Source of the DNA: Barnesiella intestinihominis YIT 11860
GTDB taxonomy: Bacteria; Bacteroidota; Bacteroidia; Bacteroidales; Barnesiellaceae
Reading direction: 5' to 3'
Assembly (NCBI RefSeq): GCF_000296465.1
Contig: NZ_JH815204.1
Span: 372,001 to 436,000, forward strand
Length of the DNA stretch: 64,000 nt
The position numbers and the translations under genes were made by a program. Within the stretch, counting starts at the first letter, position 1. Each line of letters opens with the position of its first letter. Below the pieces are notes generated by a model, which ran no database searches, was not told the DNA's origin, and saw only the letters and a list, made by a program, of their open reading frames with translations. Shown here in pieces: positions 23,154 to 37,655 of the stretch.

Positions 23154-23927
23154 CTATTCTATGTTTTTTCTCACTTGGGTGAGGTATTCTTTCATTTTTA
23201 TGGAATCTTTACGCTCGATAATATCGAGGAGAGACGATAACTGTTTCTGTATTCCCCGCACTTGGTCGGGAGTATTGGGATTGAAAAGAATTTCGGTTAG
23301 CAGGTAGTCGTCTTCCGAAAGTAGCCCCCTTGCTATGTCCATATGTTTTTTGAATGTCGTGCCGGGAGCCTCTTGATGTTTCATAATCGAGGCGAACACC
23401 AACGTCGAAGTGAATGGAACCGAGAGCGAATAAGCTATGGTTTCGTCATGCTCTTTAAAACTGTATTCGAATATATTCAATCTCAGTCGCTGGTAAATAT
23501 CCTTGAAAAAGATTTTGCCCATGTGGTCGCCTTCGGTAATGATAATTGTATTTTGCGTACTTAGGTCGCTCAAATTAGCGAATGTCGGTCCGAACATAGG
23601 GTGTGTCGATACGAATGGGTGTCGGGCTTGGGCGTAAAATTCGGGTAATCCGGTCTTGACCGAAGCAATATCCGATAGGATTGTGTGAGCCGGTAAATAG
23701 GGGAGAACGGTTTGAAACGCTTCTATCGTATATTTTACGGTTGCCGCATTGATGACTAAGTCGGGCGTAAAATCTTGTATTTCTTCTGGCCGGGTCATTC
23801 GCAAAGTGTTGAATGCGAATCTCAGTCGATGAGGGTCTATGTCGTATAGGGCGATTTCATGGTCGAAACTGAGTACATCGGCAAAGAAAGAGCCCATTTT
23901 TCCGGCTCCGAGAATTACTATTTTCAT
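23154..23927 (-). CDS. tyrA: Prephenate dehydrogenase
   Basis: Makes 4-hydroxyphenylpyruvate for tyrosine from prephenate. A 257-aa protein with an NAD(P)-binding N-terminus (IVILGAGKMGSFFADVLS, then the Asp at ALYDIDPHRL that suggests NAD) and the conserved HPMFGPTFANLSDL segment. No ACT domain is attached, so feedback by tyrosine is not obvious. Last gene of the aromatic operon, 5 bases after the DAHP synthase gene. Confidence 0.9.
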   Translation of the reverse strand: MKIVILGAGKMGSFFADVLSFDHEIALYDIDPHRLRFAFNTLRMTRPEEIQDFTPDLVINAATVKYTIEAFQTVLPYLPAHTILSDIASVKTGLPEFYAQARHPFVSTHPMFGPTFANLSDLSTQNTIIITEGDHMGKIFFKDIYQRLRLNIFEYSFKEHDETIAYSLSVPFTSTLVFASIMKHQEAPGTTFKKHMDIARGLLSEDDYLLTEILFNPNTPDQVRGIQKQLSSLLDIIERKDSIKMKEYLTQVRKNIE

Positions 23928-23932
23928 TGTTT

Positions 23933-24997
23933 TTATTTATTAATAATATCCATTTGTTGATGTACCGATTCTTCGTGAATGGCTTGCATCACTTCTTTCA
24001 TGAATTCTCCGCTCATTCCCAACTCAACGGCTTGTGCCATGCGTTTTTGTAGGATTTCGTCATAGCGGTTAGTTTGCAGCACGGGCATACTGTGCTCTTT
24101 TTTATATTGCCCGATTTCTCTGGATATGCGCATGCGTTTGGCTAACAGTTCGAGCAGTTGATTGTCGAGGTTGTCTATTTGGTGACGTAGTTCCGATAGG
24201 TTTTCTGTCGTCTGTGTGGTCTCTCGTATTACCAACATGTTGAGTATATAGTCCAGAGCGTCGGGGGTCACTTGCTGATTTTTATCGCTCCATGCACAAT
24301 CGGGGTCGCAATGGGATTCAACGATTAGTCCGTCGAATCCCAGATCCATCGCTTGTTGGCTCAATGGAGCTACAAGTTCGCGTTTACCGCCGATGTGGCT
24401 AGGGTCGCAAAAAATAGGAAGATTGGGGAGACGGCGACGTAGTTCGATGGGAATGTGCCATTGAGGCATATTGCGGTACAACTGTTTGTCGTAGCTGCTA
24501 AAACCCCGGTGTATGACTGCCAGTCGGTGGAGACCAGCGTTATAAATGCGTTCGACGGCTCCTATCCATAGTTCTAAGTCGGGATTTACCGGATTCTTGA
24601 TGAGTACCGGAATGTCTACACCTTTCAGTGCGTTGGCTATTTCTTGAACCGCAAAGGGATTGGCGGTCGTGCGTGCTCCGATCCATAAAATGTCGATACC
24701 ATGTTTTAATGCTTCGAATACGTGCCGTTCAGTGGCAACCTCTGTTGCCGTGTACATACCGGTTTCTTCTTTGACGTGTTTTAACCAAGCAAGGCCTTCT
24801 ACGCCTATACCTTCGAATCCGCCCGGTTTGGTACGAGGCTTCCATATACCTGCACGAAATATTTTAATGCCGCGCTCGGCGAGGCTTTTCGCTGTGGTCA
24901 TTACTTGCTCTTCGGTTTCGGCGCTACATGGGCCGGCTATGATAATAGGGCGTTTAGAGTCTATTCCGGGAAGTAAAATTGATTGTAAATCTTCCAT
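23933..24997 (-). CDS. Bifunctional DAHP synthase / chorismate mutase
   Basis: A fusion catalysing the first step of the shikimate pathway and the chorismate-to-prephenate step. Residues ~1-260 are a type I DAHP synthase of the AroF/KDO8P-like class (IIIAGPCSAETEEQVM, IFRAGIWKPRTKPGGFEG, IGARTTANPF, CDPSHIGGKRELV). Residues ~270-350 are an AroQ chorismate mutase helix bundle (LSELRHQIDNLDNQLLELLAKRM, REIGQYKKEHSMPVLQ). ATG 24997 (MEDLQSILLPG, 354 aa) is used; the longer open frame reads into the 3' end of the aminotransferase gene. In fused enzymes of this kind the mutase part often serves prephenate-sensitive regulation. Confidence 0.93.
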   Translation of the reverse strand: MEDLQSILLPGIDSKRPIIIAGPCSAETEEQVMTTAKSLAERGIKIFRAGIWKPRTKPGGFEGIGVEGLAWLKHVKEETGMYTATEVATERHVFEALKHGIDILWIGARTTANPFAVQEIANALKGVDIPVLIKNPVNPDLELWIGAVERIYNAGLHRLAVIHRGFSSYDKQLYRNMPQWHIPIELRRRLPNLPIFCDPSHIGGKRELVAPLSQQAMDLGFDGLIVESHCDPDCAWSDKNQQVTPDALDYILNMLVIRETTQTTENLSELRHQIDNLDNQLLELLAKRMRISREIGQYKKEHSMPVLQTNRYDEILQKRMAQAVELGMSGEFMKEVMQAIHEESVHQQMDIINK

Positions 24998-25011: not shown

Positions 25012-26199
25012 TTATTTTATTTGATTTTTTTCTATACGGTGTAACGCTTCTTGCATCTTTTTTTCGGGGGCGCAAAGCGAAATGCGAATATATCTGTTCC
25101 CTCGACTTCCGAAAATGAATCCCGGAGTAATGAAGACGTGCGCGTTGTATAATATTTCGTCGGCTAACGATTCGGCATCTGTTGCACTATCGGGAATTTT
25201 TCCCCATACGAACAATCCTGCTTGTGAAGGATCATAACTGCAACCGAGAGCTTTCATGATTTTTTCTGCGATATCACGTCGGTTACGGTACACTTCGTTT
25301 AATTGGTCATACCATTCTTGGCCGCATGACAATGCTTTTGTCGCAGCCATTTGTAGCGGACGGAACATTCCTGAATCGATATTACTTTTCACTTTCAAAA
25401 TCCATTCGATAAATTGAGGGTTGGAAGCAAGCATACCGATTCGCCAACCGGACATGTTGTGAGATTTGCTTAAAGAATTCATTTCGATACAAATGTCCTT
25501 AGACCCGGGGACAGCTAGTATACTCATCGGATTGTCGTTGAGAATGAAACTGTACGGGTTGTCGTTCACGATGATTATGTTGTGACGCTTCCCGAAATCC
25601 ACCAGCTTGGTAAACAATTCCATAGATGCTTTGGCTCCCGTAGGCATATTGGGATAGTTGACCCACATTAACTTTATACGATCGAGCGGTAACGACTCTA
25701 ATTGCTTGAAGTCGGGTTGCCAATGGTTATTTTCGTCGAGGTCGTAGGTGAAAATTTCAGCTTCGGCCAGTCGGCTGACGGAACTGTATGTGGGGTATCC
25801 CGGGTTGGGAACCAATACCCCGTCTCCGGCATTGAGAAATGCCAGACTGATGTGCAATATACCCTCTTTGGACCCTATAAGGGGTTGTATTTCTTTTTGA
25901 GGATCGAGTGTTACATTGTACCATCTGTTATACCAATCGGCGAAGGCTCGGCGTAGTTCGGGTATGCCTATGTAAGGTTGGTATCCGTGAACATCAGACT
26001 TCCGGCTCTCCGTACACAGGGTTTCAATCGTTTCGGGGTGGGGCGGCCTGTCAGGCCCGCCTATGCCCAGACTGATAATATCCAAACCGCGGGCATTTAG
26101 TTCGGCTATTTCTTTCAACTTTTTTGAGAAGTAGTATTCGCTTATGTTATTTACCCGATTAGCGGGTCTGATATTAAAGGGGTTGATTGAATTCTGCAT
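25012..26199 (-). CDS. PLP-dependent aminotransferase, class I (probable aromatic/aspartate aminotransferase)
   Basis: A 395-aa fold-type I aminotransferase. Seen: SLGIGGPDRPPHP (substrate entry loop), NPGYPTYSSVSRLAEAE, MWVNYPNMPTGAKAS, VNDNPYSF and the PLP lysine in EMNSLSKSHNMSGWRIGM. It sits between pheA and DAHP synthase/chorismate mutase, so the likely job is to transaminate phenylpyruvate, 4-hydroxyphenylpyruvate or prephenate. Its ATG overlaps the pheA end by 26 bases, suggesting translational coupling. It resembles LL-diaminopimelate aminotransferase-type enzymes, so a wider substrate range is possible. Confidence 0.88.
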   Translation of the reverse strand: MQNSINPFNIRPANRVNNISEYYFSKKLKEIAELNARGLDIISLGIGGPDRPPHPETIETLCTESRKSDVHGYQPYIGIPELRRAFADWYNRWYNVTLDPQKEIQPLIGSKEGILHISLAFLNAGDGVLVPNPGYPTYSSVSRLAEAEIFTYDLDENNHWQPDFKQLESLPLDRIKLMWVNYPNMPTGAKASMELFTKLVDFGKRHNIIIVNDNPYSFILNDNPMSILAVPGSKDICIEMNSLSKSHNMSGWRIGMLASNPQFIEWILKVKSNIDSGMFRPLQMAATKALSCGQEWYDQLNEVYRNRRDIAEKIMKALGCSYDPSQAGLFVWGKIPDSATDAESLADEILYNAHVFITPGFIFGSRGNRYIRISLCAPEKKMQEALHRIEKNQIK

Positions 26200-27019
26200 A
26201 TTCTCCGAGTATTTTAAAGTCTTTTGTTAGAGGTCTTATTGCTTCGAGGGATTGTTTGTATCGAGTAAAATTATCGAATGTAAGGTCTATATAAAATCGG
26301 TATTCCCATTCTTTCCCGATAATGGGCATGGATTGTATTTTGGATAAGTTGATGTCATAGAAAGAAAGTATGGTGAGTACTTTTGATAAACTGCCTTGTG
26401 TATGTGGTAAACTGAAAACAAGTGAAGCTTTGTTTATGCGTTTGCCTGCTATTAAAATTTCACGGTGAAAAGGATCGGCAAGAATTAGAAAACGAGTGAA
26501 ATTTCGTTTGTTGGTTTCGATACCTTCTGCCAAGATATTCATGTTGTAAATTTCGGCAGCCAGTTTGCCGCAAATGGCGGCATGGCCCGAAAGATGACGG
26601 TGCGAAATTTCTTGGGCACTACCGGCCGTATCGTCTTTTTCTACAACTTTCATTTTAGGGTGAGCTTGTAAAAAATCACCGCATTGCATTAATGCCATGG
26701 GGTGAGAGTTCACTTCGAGGATATCGTCCATAGTTTCTCCCGGTAGTGCGGCCAGTACGTGAGAAATACGTAATTTATATTCTCCTATGATACTTAATTC
26801 ACTTTTTCGTAATAGTTCGTGATTCTGTAAAATGCTGCCTGCAATGGTGTTTTCAATGGCAATGATACCCAATAAAGAACGGTCGTTATTCATGCGGTCG
26901 AACATTTCGGGAAATGTCGAGCAGGGAACCGTTTCTATTTCTTCTTCCCCGAAATAAGATCGGGCGGCGGCCTCGTGGTAGCAACCGGCTATGCCTTGTA
27001 TGGTGACTTTTTTATTCAT
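26174..27019 (-). CDS. pheA: Prephenate dehydratase
   Basis: Makes phenylpyruvate for phenylalanine from prephenate. At 281 aa: a PDT domain (~1-180; IAGCYHEAAARSYFGEEE, GIIAIENTIAGSILQNHELL, the catalytic-type KDDTAGSAQEIS with its Thr-Ala pair, NFTRFLIL) and an ACT domain (~195-275; KASLVFSLPHTQGSLSKVL, DINLSKIQSMPI). The ESRP allosteric motif of classical PheA appears as QSMP here. ATG 27019 (MNKKVTIQGIAG) is used; a TTG two codons up is ignored. First structural gene of the operon, directly behind the attenuator described at 27033-27235. Confidence 0.94.
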   Translation of the reverse strand: MNKKVTIQGIAGCYHEAAARSYFGEEEIETVPCSTFPEMFDRMNNDRSLLGIIAIENTIAGSILQNHELLRKSELSIIGEYKLRISHVLAALPGETMDDILEVNSHPMALMQCGDFLQAHPKMKVVEKDDTAGSAQEISHRHLSGHAAICGKLAAEIYNMNILAEGIETNKRNFTRFLILADPFHREILIAGKRINKASLVFSLPHTQGSLSKVLTILSFYDINLSKIQSMPIIGKEWEYRFYIDLTFDNFTRYKQSLEAIRPLTKDFKILGEYAEFNQPL

Positions 27020-27032
27020 AAGCAAGATAAAT

Positions 27033-27063
27033 AAAAAATCCCGTTCGTATTGAACGGGATTTT
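27033..27063 (-). terminator. Attenuator terminator in the pheA leader
   Basis: On the minus strand, AAAATCCCGTTC (27063-27052), loop AATAC, GAACGGGATTTT (27046-27035), then the T run continues to 27033: a 12-bp perfect stem followed by Us, ending 14 bases before the pheA ATG. No gene lies upstream on this strand for over 400 bases except the leader peptide, so this terminator sits inside the operon's own leader. Confidence 0.88.
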
Positions 27064-27116
27064 ATCATAAGTTTCTTAATTGTTTTCTATTTCTTTTTTT
27101 TGCATAAAACCCCGTT
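27053..27116 (-). ncRNA. Antiterminator pairing region of the pheA leader RNA
   Basis: AACGGGGTTTTAT (27116-27104), starting two bases after the leader stop codon, is complementary to ATAAAATCCCGTT (27065-27053) over 13 bp with one G-U pair. The 3' partner contains most of the terminator's ascending arm, so this pairing and the terminator exclude each other. A ribosome resting on the leader stop codon would cover the 5' partner; one stalled at the Phe/Tyr codons would leave it free. Confidence 0.8.
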
Positions 27117-27117
27117 T

Positions 27118-27177
27118 CTATTTTTCTCCAAAATAAAAATAAAAGTAAAAGTAATATGCAAAATCAAAATTCTTCAT
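27118..27177 (-). CDS. Phe/Tyr-rich leader peptide of the pheA operon
   Basis: A 19-codon open frame, MKNFDFAYYFYFYFYFGEK, with a TAG stop. Six Phe and five Tyr codons are present, nine of them in an unbroken run (residues 8-16). It starts about 20 bases after the predicted transcription start and ends 2 bases before the antiterminator arm. This composition and placement match the leader peptides of ribosome-mediated attenuation (known in enteric trp, phe and his operons). The mix of Phe and Tyr fits an operon that carries both pheA and tyrA. Too short for standard gene callers. Confidence 0.85.
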   Translation of the reverse strand: MKNFDFAYYFYFYFYFGEK

Positions 27178-27204
27178 TGCCTGTCAAATATGAGTTTGAT
27201 GTTG

Positions 27205-27235
27205 CAAATGTAATGAAATCATTTTTGAATCCAAA
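27205..27235 (-). promoter_or_regulatory. Promoter of the pheA-tyrA operon
   Basis: On the minus strand TTTG (27235-27232), a 19-base spacer, TACATTTG (27212-27205): both elements exact. Predicted start near 27198, so the leader RNA would be about 165 bases to the attenuation point. Confidence 0.8.
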
Positions 27236-27474: not shown

Positions 27475-27933
27475 ATGGAAACTTCGGAATTAACACTTTT
27501 TTCTGCAATGTGTGAGTCTTTTTGTACGGCAGTGGAGAAGGCGCGTGCAGAGGCGATGTCCTTGACCGATATGTATGTGCAGGTGAAATACGATGAACAG
27601 TTGTTTTCGGTATTTGATGATACTGAAAATATATTGGTGCAATCGGTAATTGATGGATTGGACGAGTGGCGAGATTCCAGTGGAGAACGTTCGGATGCTG
27701 TGATAATTGCTTTTCTGAGGAAGGTGTTGAGTCATGAAGATGTGAATCTTGCTTTACATTCGCTGGATATTATACCACCTTTTTCTGTCGTGTTGGTAGA
27801 TAATGAGATGGAGCCTGTCGCCGATTTGATTACATTGGACGATGAGAATATCTATTTGCACGATGATTTTTGGGAAAAAATGGATAAAGAGCTTGACGAT
27901 TTTTTTGAACAATTGATGTCCGATACGAAATAA
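27475..27933 (+). CDS. Conserved-looking acidic protein of unknown function
   Basis: A 152-aa cytoplasmic protein without signal peptide or membrane segment. It is strongly acidic, above all in the last 30 residues (LITLDDENIYLHDDFWEKMDKELDDFFEQL). Middle part ILVQSVIDGLDEWRDSSGERSDAVIIAFLRKVLSHEDVNLALHSLDIIP looks helical. A good promoter lies just upstream and tig follows after its own promoter. I recognise no domain. The acidic tail could be a basic-partner-binding surface, but nothing in the sequence names the partner. Confidence 0.7.
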   Translation: METSELTLFSAMCESFCTAVEKARAEAMSLTDMYVQVKYDEQLFSVFDDTENILVQSVIDGLDEWRDSSGERSDAVIIAFLRKVLSHEDVNLALHSLDIIPPFSVVLVDNEMEPVADLITLDDENIYLHDDFWEKMDKELDDFFEQLMSDTK

Positions 27934-35714: not shown

Positions 35715-37655
35715 ATGAAAAACAAATGGCTCTTAGCGGCTTTGCTTGCCGGAAATTCTTGGTTTGGAGGGTGGGCTACCGATGTCGACCCTGTTATTAT
35801 GAGAGTGAATAATAAAGATATTCACAAATCGGAATTTGAGTATATCTATAATAAGAACAGCCAGCAACAAATCGATCATAAATCTCTCGATGAATACGTT
35901 ACACTATTTAAGAACTACAAGTTGAAAGTTGCCGAGGCCGAAGCTATGGGGATTGATACGACTTCGGCATTTAAAAATGAATTGGCGGGGTATAGAGAAG
36001 AGTTGGCTAAACCCTATTTGATCGATGCTTCTGTTGATGACCGTTTGGCACATGAGGCTTATGACCGAATGAAAGAAGATGTGGAGGTAAGCCATATTCT
36101 CATAGGATTGAATGCTCGGATTCCTGAGGACCGAGCCGAGGCAAAGAAAAAAGCCGAATCGGTATTGGCTAAAATCAAGGCGGGTGAAGACTTTGGAATG
36201 TTGGCAGAGAAATTCAGTGAAGACGGATCGAGGCAGAATAAGGGATATTTAGGATTTATTAGAGGCGGACGTACGGTTTATCCTTTTGAAAAGGCTGCTT
36301 TCGCATTACAAGCGGGAGAAGTTTCCGATATAGTGGAAACCCAGTTCGGATATCACATTATAAAAGTACATAGTCGTCGTCCCAATCCGGGAGAGTTTCT
36401 ATTTTCCCATATCATGATATTGGTGCCTCGTGGTGCTTCTGATGAAGTAAAAGCGCAGAAAGAATCCGAGATACGAGCCATTTATGAAGAATTGAAGTCG
36501 GGAGCCGATTTTGCTACGATGGCAAAGGAGCGGTCGGAGGATAAGGCTTCTGCCGTACGAGGTGGAGAATTACCGTGGGTGAGTAGTGGACAATTCGTAA
36601 AAGAGTTCGAGGATGCTGCATTTGCTCTTAAAAATAAAGGAGATATTACAGAGCCTGTATTATCTCCCTATGGTTGGCATATCATTAAGTTAATGGACCG
36701 GCGGGATATTAAGCCATTTGAACAAATGCGCTCGGAGATTACGCGAATGATGGCACGAGACGAAAGAGGTAGCATGGCTCGTAATGCGATGGTGGCTAAA
36801 TTGAAAAATGATTATGGCTTTTCTTTGGAAGAATCGCAGCAGGCGAAGTTGATGAAATTGGCTGGCGATTTAGGTAAAGTCGATTCTTCTTATATAGCGG
36901 CTATTCATAATGACCAAAGTGTTTTATTCTCATTTGAGAACCATTCATATACAGTGGCCGATTTTGCCTCGTTTTTGTCCAAAGGCCGTGATGTGACGGT
37001 CAATGCACCCGATTATGTTTCGACTATGATTGGTTATATGGCCGATATGGAAATATTAGATTTCGAGAAGGCTCATTTGGAAGATAAGTATCCCGATTTT
37101 CGCAATTTGATGAATGAATATCGAGACGGCATGTTGCTGTTTGAAATTAGCAATAGGGAAGTTTGGGAAAAAGCATCGAAAGATACCGAGGGCTTGCAGA
37201 AGTTTTTCAAGAAAAATAGGAAAAAATACAAATGGGATAAACCTCATTATAAAGGATTTTTGATTCAATGCTGTGATGCGGCTACCGCCGATGGCATAAA
37301 GAACCGGATTAAAGAACTCGATGACGATTCTGTAATCGTCGTGTTGAATCGAGAGTTCAATACCGACTCTTTAACAAGAGTAAAAGTGGAACGAGGTTTG
37401 TTTGTTGAGGGAGATAATGAAAAAATTGACGAATTGGTATTTAAGGGAGCTCCGGTGAAAGCCGATGAGAAGTTGCCGATAGCTTTTGTGTCTGGTAAAC
37501 TATTGAAGAAAATGCCGGAAGCGTATACCGATGTGAGAGGACAAGTGACGGCCGATTACCAAACTTACCTTGAAAAAGTTTGGGTGAAGAAACTCAATAA
37601 AAAATATCCGGTAGAAATCTATGAAGATGTCCTAAAAACAGTTAATAGGCCGTAG
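35715..37655 (+). CDS. Periplasmic peptidylprolyl isomerase, PpiC/parvulin type, two isomerase domains
   Basis: A 646-aa exported protein. A signal peptide covers about residues 1-21 (MKNKWLLAALLAGNSWFGGWA). A SurA-like helical N-terminus follows, then two tandem parvulin domains: ~120-220 (VSHILIGL, FSEDGSRQNKGYLGFIRGG, FGYHIIKVHSR) and ~230-330 (FSHIMILVPRG, SEDKASAVRGGELPWVSSG, YGWHIIKLMDRR). A C-terminal ~300-residue region has no motif I recognise. It probably assists folding of outer-membrane proteins. ATG 35715 is used; a GTG four codons up is open but weaker. First of three related genes. Confidence 0.88.
   Translation: MKNKWLLAALLAGNSWFGGWATDVDPVIMRVNNKDIHKSEFEYIYNKNSQQQIDHKSLDEYVTLFKNYKLKVAEAEAMGIDTTSAFKNELAGYREELAKPYLIDASVDDRLAHEAYDRMKEDVEVSHILIGLNARIPEDRAEAKKKAESVLAKIKAGEDFGMLAEKFSEDGSRQNKGYLGFIRGGRTVYPFEKAAFALQAGEVSDIVETQFGYHIIKVHSRRPNPGEFLFSHIMILVPRGASDEVKAQKESEIRAIYEELKSGADFATMAKERSEDKASAVRGGELPWVSSGQFVKEFEDAAFALKNKGDITEPVLSPYGWHIIKLMDRRDIKPFEQMRSEITRMMARDERGSMARNAMVAKLKNDYGFSLEESQQAKLMKLAGDLGKVDSSYIAAIHNDQSVLFSFENHSYTVADFASFLSKGRDVTVNAPDYVSTMIGYMADMEILDFEKAHLEDKYPDFRNLMNEYRDGMLLFEISNREVWEKASKDTEGLQKFFKKNRKKYKWDKPHYKGFLIQCCDAATADGIKNRIKELDDDSVIVVLNREFNTDSLTRVKVERGLFVEGDNEKIDELVFKGAPVKADEKLPIAFVSGKLLKKMPEAYTDVRGQVTADYQTYLEKVWVKKLNKKYPVEIYEDVLKTVNRP

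What the first reader, a model, noticed from the sequence alone, without database searches (positions are those of the whole stretch)
27033..27235. A complete Phe/Tyr ribosome-stalling attenuator in front of the pheA-aminotransferase-DAHP synthase/chorismate mutase-tyrA operon
On the minus strand, in order: an exact promoter (TTTG-N19-TACATTTG, 27235-27205); a 19-codon reading frame MKNFDFAYYFYFYFYFGEK (27177-27118) with 11 Phe/Tyr codons, nine consecutive; an arm AACGGGGTTTTAT (27116-27104) starting two bases past the stop; its 13-bp partner ATAAAATCCCGTT (27065-27053); and a terminator (27063-27033) that uses the same partner, with a U run 14 bases before pheA. Chance production of all parts in the right order and spacing is very unlikely. 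Logic: shortage of charged tRNA-Phe or tRNA-Tyr stalls the ribosome, frees the 5' arm, forms the antiterminator and lets the operon be read; with plenty of both, the ribosome reaches the stop codon, masks the arm and the terminator forms. The peptide counts both amino acids because the operon makes both. I know this mechanism from enteric trp, phe and his operons; I know of no described Phe/Tyr leader of this kind in Bacteroidales.
Basis: partly seen in the sequence, partly recalled or inferred. Interest (0 to 1): 0.92.

Follow-up and report, generated by a model that had tools for sequence, protein, structure and literature searches.

The report
Phe/Tyr leader-peptide switch before pheA
A gut bacterium carries, just ahead of its phenylalanine and tyrosine genes, a tiny reading frame packed with Phe and Tyr codons plus competing RNA hairpins; the arrangement recurs widely in its bacterial class and looks like the classic trp-type switch that senses amino-acid shortage.

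Summary
Nine consecutive Phe/Tyr codons occur once in the 3.44 Mb genome, here. Of 206 distinct regions upstream of pheA homologues, 149 hold a short ATG frame with at least six Phe/Tyr in nine codons, against 2 of 206 reverse complements and 56 of 8240 shuffles: 9/9 same-genus, 88/108 same-order, 46/50 same-class, 6/39 other-class regions. An antiterminator that excludes both the terminator and a pause hairpin is supported by covariation. Arm 2 starts 5-13 nt after the last aromatic codon in 120/134 leaders versus 230/1340 shuffles, although the stop codon moves by about 30 nt. Leader codons follow operon content: 145/145 leaders before pheA operons that also hold aminotransferase, DAHP synthase or tyrA have Tyr in the window; 3/3 before a lone pheA have none, the third predicted beforehand. 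Best explanation: ribosome-mediated attenuation sensing both Phe and Tyr. A 2021 Flavobacterium paper hinted at such elements before pheA and hisG; this is a new variant of a known kind, spread over the class. No expression data were available.

The parts
27205..27235 (-). Bacteroidota-type promoter: TTTG (27235-27232), 19-nt spacer, TACATTTG (27212-27205)
   Evidence: TAnnTTTG within 80 nt upstream of the leader ATG in 108 of the 142 leaders (of 149) with enough upstream DNA (9/9 genus, 75/85 order, 24/43 class, 0/5 other class) versus 167 of 2840 shuffles; the -7 consensus is given in a passage of PMC9723704
27118..27177 (-). leader peptide ORF MKNFDFAYYFYFYFYFGEK*, 11 Phe/Tyr codons of 19
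27155..27163 (-). arm 1 of the pause (1:2) stem, TTTTGCATA, inside the leader ORF
   Evidence: fold; covariation; synonymous-codon control
27104..27116 (-). arm 2, AACGGGGTTTTAT: 5' arm of the antiterminator
27098..27106 (-). 3' side of the pause stem, TATGCAAAA, overlapping the last 3 bases of arm 2
27053..27065 (-). arm 3, ATAAAATCCCGTT: 3' arm of the antiterminator, overlapping the 5' arm of the terminator
27033..27063 (-). intrinsic terminator: stem AAAATCCCGTTC/GAACGGGATTTT, loop AATAC, T-run 27038-27033
   Evidence: -16.5 kcal/mol; hairpin of -9 or better before a T-run in 134 of 142 leaders versus 22 of 426 shuffled tails; covariation
26174..27019 (-). pheA, prephenate dehydratase
   Evidence: NCBIfam best hits prephenate dehydratase, below curated cut-offs
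25012..26199 (-). PLP aminotransferase (LL-DAP/aspartate aminotransferase-like)
   Evidence: below curated cut-offs
23933..24997 (-). bifunctional DAHP synthase / chorismate mutase
   Evidence: scanned from 24994; below curated cut-offs
23154..23927 (-). tyrA, prephenate dehydrogenase
   Evidence: weak but consistent NCBIfam hits, below cut-offs

Best explanation
It is a ribosome-mediated transcription attenuator of the trp/phe/his type that reads both charged tRNA-Phe and tRNA-Tyr. Transcription starts just below the TACATTTG box; a ribosome translates the Phe/Tyr-rich leader behind RNA polymerase, which the 1:2 hairpin probably holds back. If tRNA-Phe or tRNA-Tyr is short, the ribosome stalls in the run, its leading edge just before arm 2, which then pairs with arm 3 (antiterminator) before arm 4 is made, and pheA-aminotransferase-DAHP synthase/chorismate mutase-tyrA is transcribed. 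If both are plentiful, the ribosome reaches the stop codon, covers arm 2, and the 3:4 terminator ends transcription before pheA. Shown here: anatomy, conservation, covariation, spacing, and the match between leader codons and operon content. Inferred: translation of the leader, stalling, termination and the response to amino-acid supply.
For: (1) Nine consecutive Phe/Tyr codons once in 3.44 Mb. (2) Conservation 149/206 versus 56/8240 shuffles and 2/206 reverse complements; at least 7 of 9 codons: 128/206 versus 5/8240. (3) Terminator in 134/142 versus 22/426 shuffled tails. (4) Arm 2-arm 3 pairing in the best 5% of shuffles in 114/134; better than the median of random foreign arms in 119/134, in the best 10% of them in 75/134; better than the median in 127/134 when donors' arm 3 shares no 6-mer. 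(5) Covariation on 60 sequences: antiterminator 9 of 13 pairs, terminator 10 of 12, pause 7 of 9 with changes on both sides; covariation scores exceed all 500 shuffles and all slid versions. (6) Arm 2 begins 5-13 nt after the last aromatic codon in 120/134 versus 230/1340, while its distance to the stop codon runs from -30 (limit of the search) to +6 in 113 of 114. (7) The pause arm pairs better than synonymous recodings of the same peptide (mean z -1.24, SEM 0.10, n=114); 67 of 80 Ala codons counted are GCA. (8) Tyr in the window in 145/145 leaders before pheA with partner genes and 0/3 before lone pheA; G046 was predicted before its downstream DNA was fetched (next gene ilvD). In G026 the separate tyrA-DAHPS operon has its own leader with 6 Tyr/4 Phe. 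In g29 the separate aminotransferase operon has 5 Tyr/4 Phe in three genomes, 4 Tyr/7 Phe in the fourth. (9) The 30 best hits of a covariance model in 295 Bacteroidales genomes lie before pheA (26) or before aminotransferase-DAHPS (4). (10) The same genome has His-rich and Ile/Leu/Val-rich leaders with terminators and competing arms before hisG and ilvD.
Against: No transcript, ribosome or 3'-end data. Folded complete, with the ORF masked up to the end of the run, the window RNA prefers the terminator (-16.5) to the antiterminator (-13.4), so antitermination needs to form first, during transcription. 57 of 206 regions fail the ATG criterion: 20/108 order, 4/50 class, 33/39 other classes; three of them pass with GTG/TTG starts. 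20 of 134 antiterminators are not distinguishable from shuffles. 8 of 142 fail the terminator rule; by eye they have hairpins with short or displaced U-runs. Alignment A1 was drawn from leaders already chosen for a good antiterminator, which favours that stem. The antiterminator's number of pair types is no higher than in shuffles (143/500). The pause stem is weakest: 71.5% of cells paired, +2 slide 68%, and 21/500 shuffles reach its count of two-sided pairs. The lone-pheA contrast rests on three lineages; two lone-pheA genomes of one of these genera (G532, G671) have no leader, and G036 and G611 have two Tyr codons after the Phe run. The Ala-codon bias lacks a genomic baseline.
Confidence: 0.92

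Rival explanations
1. The short frame makes a small aromatic peptide that acts on its own (membrane peptide or signal), and the terminator is incidental.
For: Its composition is conserved over a class.
Against: The order of Phe and Tyr and the residues after the run vary, the stop codon moves by about 30 nt, codon choice tracks RNA pairing, and Tyr is missing from the window before lone pheA.
Confidence: 0.03
2. Constitutive or protein-controlled terminator: the hairpin simply lowers expression or is switched by an RNA-binding protein, without ribosome sensing.
For: Terminator is strong and conserved and in the complete RNA more stable than the antiterminator.
Against: Would not explain the Phe/Tyr run, the run-to-arm-2 spacing or Tyr loss at lone pheA. 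The upstream gene is divergent (27475-27933), so it is not that gene's terminator.
Confidence: 0.03
3. Control of pheA translation rather than of transcription, the stalled ribosome opening or closing the pheA start region.
For: The terminator ends only about 14 nt before pheA here; some leaders have weak U-runs.
Against: Hairpin plus T-run in 134/142; the distance from terminator to gene varies (10th to 90th percentile 13 to 84 nt).
Confidence: 0.04

Closest known systems
E. coli pheA/pheL attenuator (Rfam Phe_leader; recalled, not fetched)
   Same: Leader peptide rich in the product amino acid, terminator and antiterminator before pheA.
   Different: The known leader reads Phe only (recalled); here Phe and Tyr are interleaved and the operon serves both. 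No Rfam match at gathering; Phe_leader is not among the 15 matches at E<=10.
E. coli trp and his attenuators (recalled)
   Same: Alternative stems 1:2, 2:3, 3:4; ribosome position decides.
   Different: Amino acids sensed, sequence, and a host with few Shine-Dalgarno signals (SD-like motif before 2 of 142 leaders).
Structured 5' elements before pheA and hisG in Flavobacterium psychrophilum (PMC9723704; passages and one section read)
   Same: Same genes, same phylum; leader-peptide attenuation suggested for amino-acid operons; no Rfam hit.
   Different: The section read gives no codons, stems or range beyond Flavobacteriaceae; its supplement could not be read here.
ilv and thr leaders of enterobacteria (recalled)
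   Same: One leader reading several amino acids for a multi-product operon.
   Different: Branched-chain or Thr/Ile rather than aromatic.

Membership tests
Ribosome-mediated (leader-peptide) transcription attenuator | short ORF with codons for the end product(s), upstream of the biosynthetic operon | tested here: met
Ribosome-mediated (leader-peptide) transcription attenuator | intrinsic terminator between leader ORF and first gene | tested here: met
Ribosome-mediated (leader-peptide) transcription attenuator | antiterminator that excludes the terminator | tested here: met
Ribosome-mediated (leader-peptide) transcription attenuator | pause (1:2) hairpin overlapping the coding run | tested here: met
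   (weakest of the three stems)
Ribosome-mediated (leader-peptide) transcription attenuator | regulatory codons placed so that a stalled ribosome leaves arm 2 free | tested here: met
   120/134 versus 230/1340 within 5-13 nt; ribosome footprint recalled
Ribosome-mediated (leader-peptide) transcription attenuator | leader is translated and read-through responds to charged tRNA-Phe/Tyr | not testable with these tools
   needs ribosome profiling, Term-seq, reporters
Rfam Phe_leader (enteric pheL) | match to the covariance model | tested here: not met
   no match at gathering, none listed at E<=10
T-box / riboswitch | match to a described tRNA- or ligand-binding RNA family | tested here: not met
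   Searches (window; five loci): no family reached its gathering score

The most novel reading that the evidence does not exclude
An aromatic attenuator already present in an ancestor of the class, which counts the aromatic amino acids its operon feeds: Phe and Tyr as a rule, and also Trp in many leaders outside the window's order (DAHP synthase feeds Trp too). It is rewritten when the operon is split (Tyr lost before lone pheA, kept before tyrA operons) and built in series as tandem attenuators in several lineages, giving a multiplicative gate. It implies that leaders in these bacteria are translated close behind RNA polymerase although Shine-Dalgarno signals are rare.
Probability: 0.4. Interest if true: 0.75.

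Novelty: new variant of a known kind. Interest (0 to 1): 0.62.

Why it matters
Leader-peptide attenuation is textbook for enteric bacteria; a 2010 survey (PMC2965389, passages seen) knew of none shown outside Proteobacteria and Actinobacteria before its own Firmicutes case. A covarying, dual-specificity example spread over Bacteroidia, with His and branched-chain leaders in the same genome and a Trp leader in a relative, indicates that a major gut and environmental group regulates amino-acid synthesis this way. It makes a question directly testable: whether transcription and translation are coupled in Bacteroidota. Lineages where pheA has split off are natural codon-swap experiments.

Tried and rejected
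Rejected: chance (shuffles, reverse complements); a known Rfam leader, riboswitch or T-box (the sub-threshold Thr_leader and Trp_leader hits, E 0.27 and 7, run to the terminator and lie far below their cut-offs). The first leader definition (longest frame per stop codon; 142/206) missed nested ATGs and was replaced by any-ATG (149/206); terminator, antiterminator, spacing and Trp statistics keep the 142.

Led nowhere or unclear: leaders before aspartokinase/thrA and the TrpB-like gene of this genome; Phe/Tyr x7 pattern not specific; of seven weak model hits elsewhere that I fetched (G026 two, G660, G010, G068, G650, G570) none showed a Phe/Tyr leader, and one, in G010, turned out to be a Trp leader before trpB. 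Literature: ten searches. Also seen as passages: PMC4833913 and PMC8305728 (on his genes of this superphylum, the word 'leader' does not occur). Lopatovskaya et al. 2010, a comparative survey of attenuation cited in PMC4833913, is not held and may contain Bacteroidetes cases; supplements could not be read.

Rows dropped: 218 loci, 8 duplicates removed by sequence (210), 4 with under 150 nt upstream left out (206). One search used 142 of 149 leaders (at least 60 nt upstream). Alignment A1 used 60 of the 113 leaders (themselves those with a good antiterminator and under 180 nt), all of the same genus or order but not every such one. One of 149 leader loci is missing from the operon tally. Regions fetched by place were picked by hand from capped match lists.

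Full report
Observation. Nine bases inside the leader ORF (27163-27155) also pair with 27106-27098: the full-length RNA folds into a 1:2 hairpin plus terminator; RNA ending at arm 3 folds into the antiterminator; RNA beginning behind arm 2 folds into the terminator. With the ORF masked but the RNA complete, the terminator still wins, so antitermination must be decided while arm 4 is not yet made, as in the classic model. The host is Barnesiella or very near it: the seven best named relatives have 85-93% PheA identity and six are labelled Barnesiella. The operon is pheA, aminotransferase, DAHP synthase/chorismate mutase, tyrA; among 80 named relatives 68 have aminotransferase, DAHPS/CM and TyrA on the same strand of the fetched stretch and 12 show fewer, some on short contigs.

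Chance. Nine consecutive Phe/Tyr codons occur once in the genome, here; the backwards pattern never. Seven consecutive are not informative.

Conservation. Upstream regions of pheA homologues were collected from relatives (45 of 99 with a match), named genome contigs (80 kept of 137 relatives found) and genomes of the phylum (337 of 392 with a match), taking the loci returned and further ones by place, picked by hand from the capped lists: 206 usable distinct regions. 149 carry a short ATG frame with at least six Phe/Tyr in nine codons; controls 2/206 (reverse complement) and 56/8240 (dinucleotide shuffles). By kinship: 9/9, 88/108, 46/50 and 6/39 for genus, order, class and other classes of the phylum. 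The sample leans to better PheA matches. Of the other-class genomes with a leader, G164, G254, G484 and G112 have a PheA more similar to this one than other members of their families do; G164 and G254 carry aminotransferase and DAHP synthase downstream. Transfer of operon and leader together is an inference.

Stems. Terminators follow 134/142 leaders, 22/426 shuffled tails. Arm 2 pairs with arm 3 in the best 5% of shuffles in 114/134 and better than the median foreign arm in 127/134 when donors share no 6-mer of arm 3. On a 60-sequence alignment (A1), drawn from leaders with a good antiterminator, the antiterminator, terminator and pause stems have 9/13, 10/12 and 7/9 pairs with two-sided changes, exceed all 500 shuffles in cells paired and covariation score, and exceed all slid versions in covariation score. 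Against: the antiterminator's pair-type count is matched by 143/500 shuffles, and the pause stem is only a little better paired than its +2 slide (71.5 versus 68.0%). Related sequences inflate shuffle counts, so the slides and the foreign-arm test matter more. The pause arm pairs better than synonymous recodings (mean z -1.24 over 114; -0.78 in the genus), so RNA pairing seems selected beyond the peptide.

Spacing. The stop codon may lie before or behind arm 2 (distance -30 to +6 nt in 113 of 114 good cases; -30 is the limit of the search), but the last aromatic codon lies 9-12 nt before arm 2 at the quartiles; 120/134 fall within 5-13 nt against 230/1340 for shuffled regions. Taking a ribosome to cover about 9-12 nt beyond its A-site codon (recalled), this is what a stalled ribosome leaving arm 2 just free needs, and both stop positions would let a finishing ribosome cover arm 2.

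Codon logic. If the leader senses what the operon makes, lone pheA genes should drop Tyr codons. Among 148 of 149 leader-bearing loci with downstream DNA examined, 145 have aminotransferase, DAHP synthase and/or TyrA behind pheA (some DAHP synthase only), and all 145 have Tyr in the nine-codon window; three have pheA alone and none has Tyr there (104 and 2; 41 and 1). The third, G046, was predicted from its Tyr-free leader before its downstream DNA was read; its next gene is ilvD. G036's peptide has two Tyr after the run. A congener, G611, repeats the Phe-only run before lone pheA, while G532 and G671 have lone pheA without a leader. Separated partner operons keep Tyr: FAYFYYYFYF in three g29 genomes and the more Phe-rich FAYFFFYYFYFF in the fourth, and MNNTFGYYAFYYYFFYNN before tyrA-DAHPS in G026.

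Trp. Trp codons occur in 23 of 45 same-class (other-order) leaders, 10 of 83 same-order, 0 of 9 same-genus and 0 of 5 other-class leaders; 23 Trp among 686 non-Phe/Tyr residues (3.4%) against 0.87% TGG per trinucleotide in those regions. Several of these genomes are close relatives, so this is suggestive only.

Tandem leaders. 11 of 203 regions hold two leader frames; nine of these have a hairpin of -10 kcal/mol or better before a T-run behind both (L022's second is weak, L176's far one is probably chance). Seven further loci (L264, L268, L271-L275) also hold two frames, each with such a hairpin of -9.6 or better. A covariance model (R1) had hits in 129 of 295 Bacteroidales genomes at E<=0.01, with adjacent double hits in five among the listed matches; its weak hits include chance, but the 30 best all precede pheA (26) or aminotransferase-DAHPS (4). 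One weak hit (G010, E 0.0019) is a different leader, MNLTSVNKFWWWHLQLQQS, followed by a -17.2 hairpin and trpB.

Comparison with the known. It works like enteric trp/phe/his attenuators and meets each sequence-level criterion tested; it is not a member of the Rfam Phe_leader family. PMC9723704 (section read) reports clues of leader-peptide attenuation before amino-acid operons and conserved structured elements before pheA and hisG in Flavobacteriaceae; PMC7366714 (passages) mentions leader-like sORFs in B. thetaiotaomicron; PMC2965389 (passages) shows the state of 2010. In the listings and passages of ten searches I saw no description of a Phe/Tyr dual leader or its range; most subscription journals are not held. 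Hence: new variant of a known kind, well supported, with the dynamic steps inferred.

Noticed in passing
L140 (own genome contig C3, upstream of hisG near 127670, minus strand): His-rich leader MMVLFLHHSHVHCPFGG followed by a terminator (-14.8) whose 5' arm also pairs with a segment just after the leader (-12.1): a likely his attenuator in the same genome (no shuffled control).
   Followed up: partly
L141 (own genome contig C2, upstream of ilvD near 37038, minus strand): Ile/Leu/Val-rich leader MIIMLLHVISLSVISELLVVSR with terminator (-13.7) and competing arm (-14.2): a likely ilv attenuator in the same genome (no shuffled control).
   Followed up: partly
L286 (G010, upstream of trpB, minus strand): Short frame MNLTSVNKFWWWHLQLQQS with three Trp codons in a row, then a -17.2 hairpin before a T-run, then trpB: a likely trp attenuator in a relative of the same order.
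   Followed up: partly
L010, L012, L025, L120, L124, L136, L150, L158, L195 and L264, L268, L271-L275: Tandem Phe/Tyr leaders about 120-190 nt apart before pheA, each followed by a terminator-like hairpin: two attenuator modules in series.
   Followed up: partly
L011/L283 and L258/L284 (G036); L280 and L279 (G026); L290 (G046): Split operons: lone pheA with Phe-only runs; where the partner operon was found (G036, G026) it has its own Tyr-containing leader.
   Followed up: yes
leaders among L116-L139 and L162-L197 (same class, other orders): 23 of 45 carry a Trp codon in or near the aromatic run, suggesting sensing of a third aromatic amino acid.
   Followed up: partly
L188 (G164), L165 (G254), L137 (G484), L123 (G112), L119 (G380): Genomes of other classes with the leader. 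In the first four PheA is more similar to this one than in other members of their families; G164 and G254 carry aminotransferase and DAHPS downstream: possible transfer of operon with leader. G380's family is similar throughout and its other two members examined lack the leader in the first scan.
   Followed up: no
L143 (own genome C1, upstream of a long aspartokinase frame, probably thrA): Short frame MIILMTRLRYRTYFFFGVTAMGTTP upstream with some Thr codons; unclear whether it is a leader.
   Followed up: no
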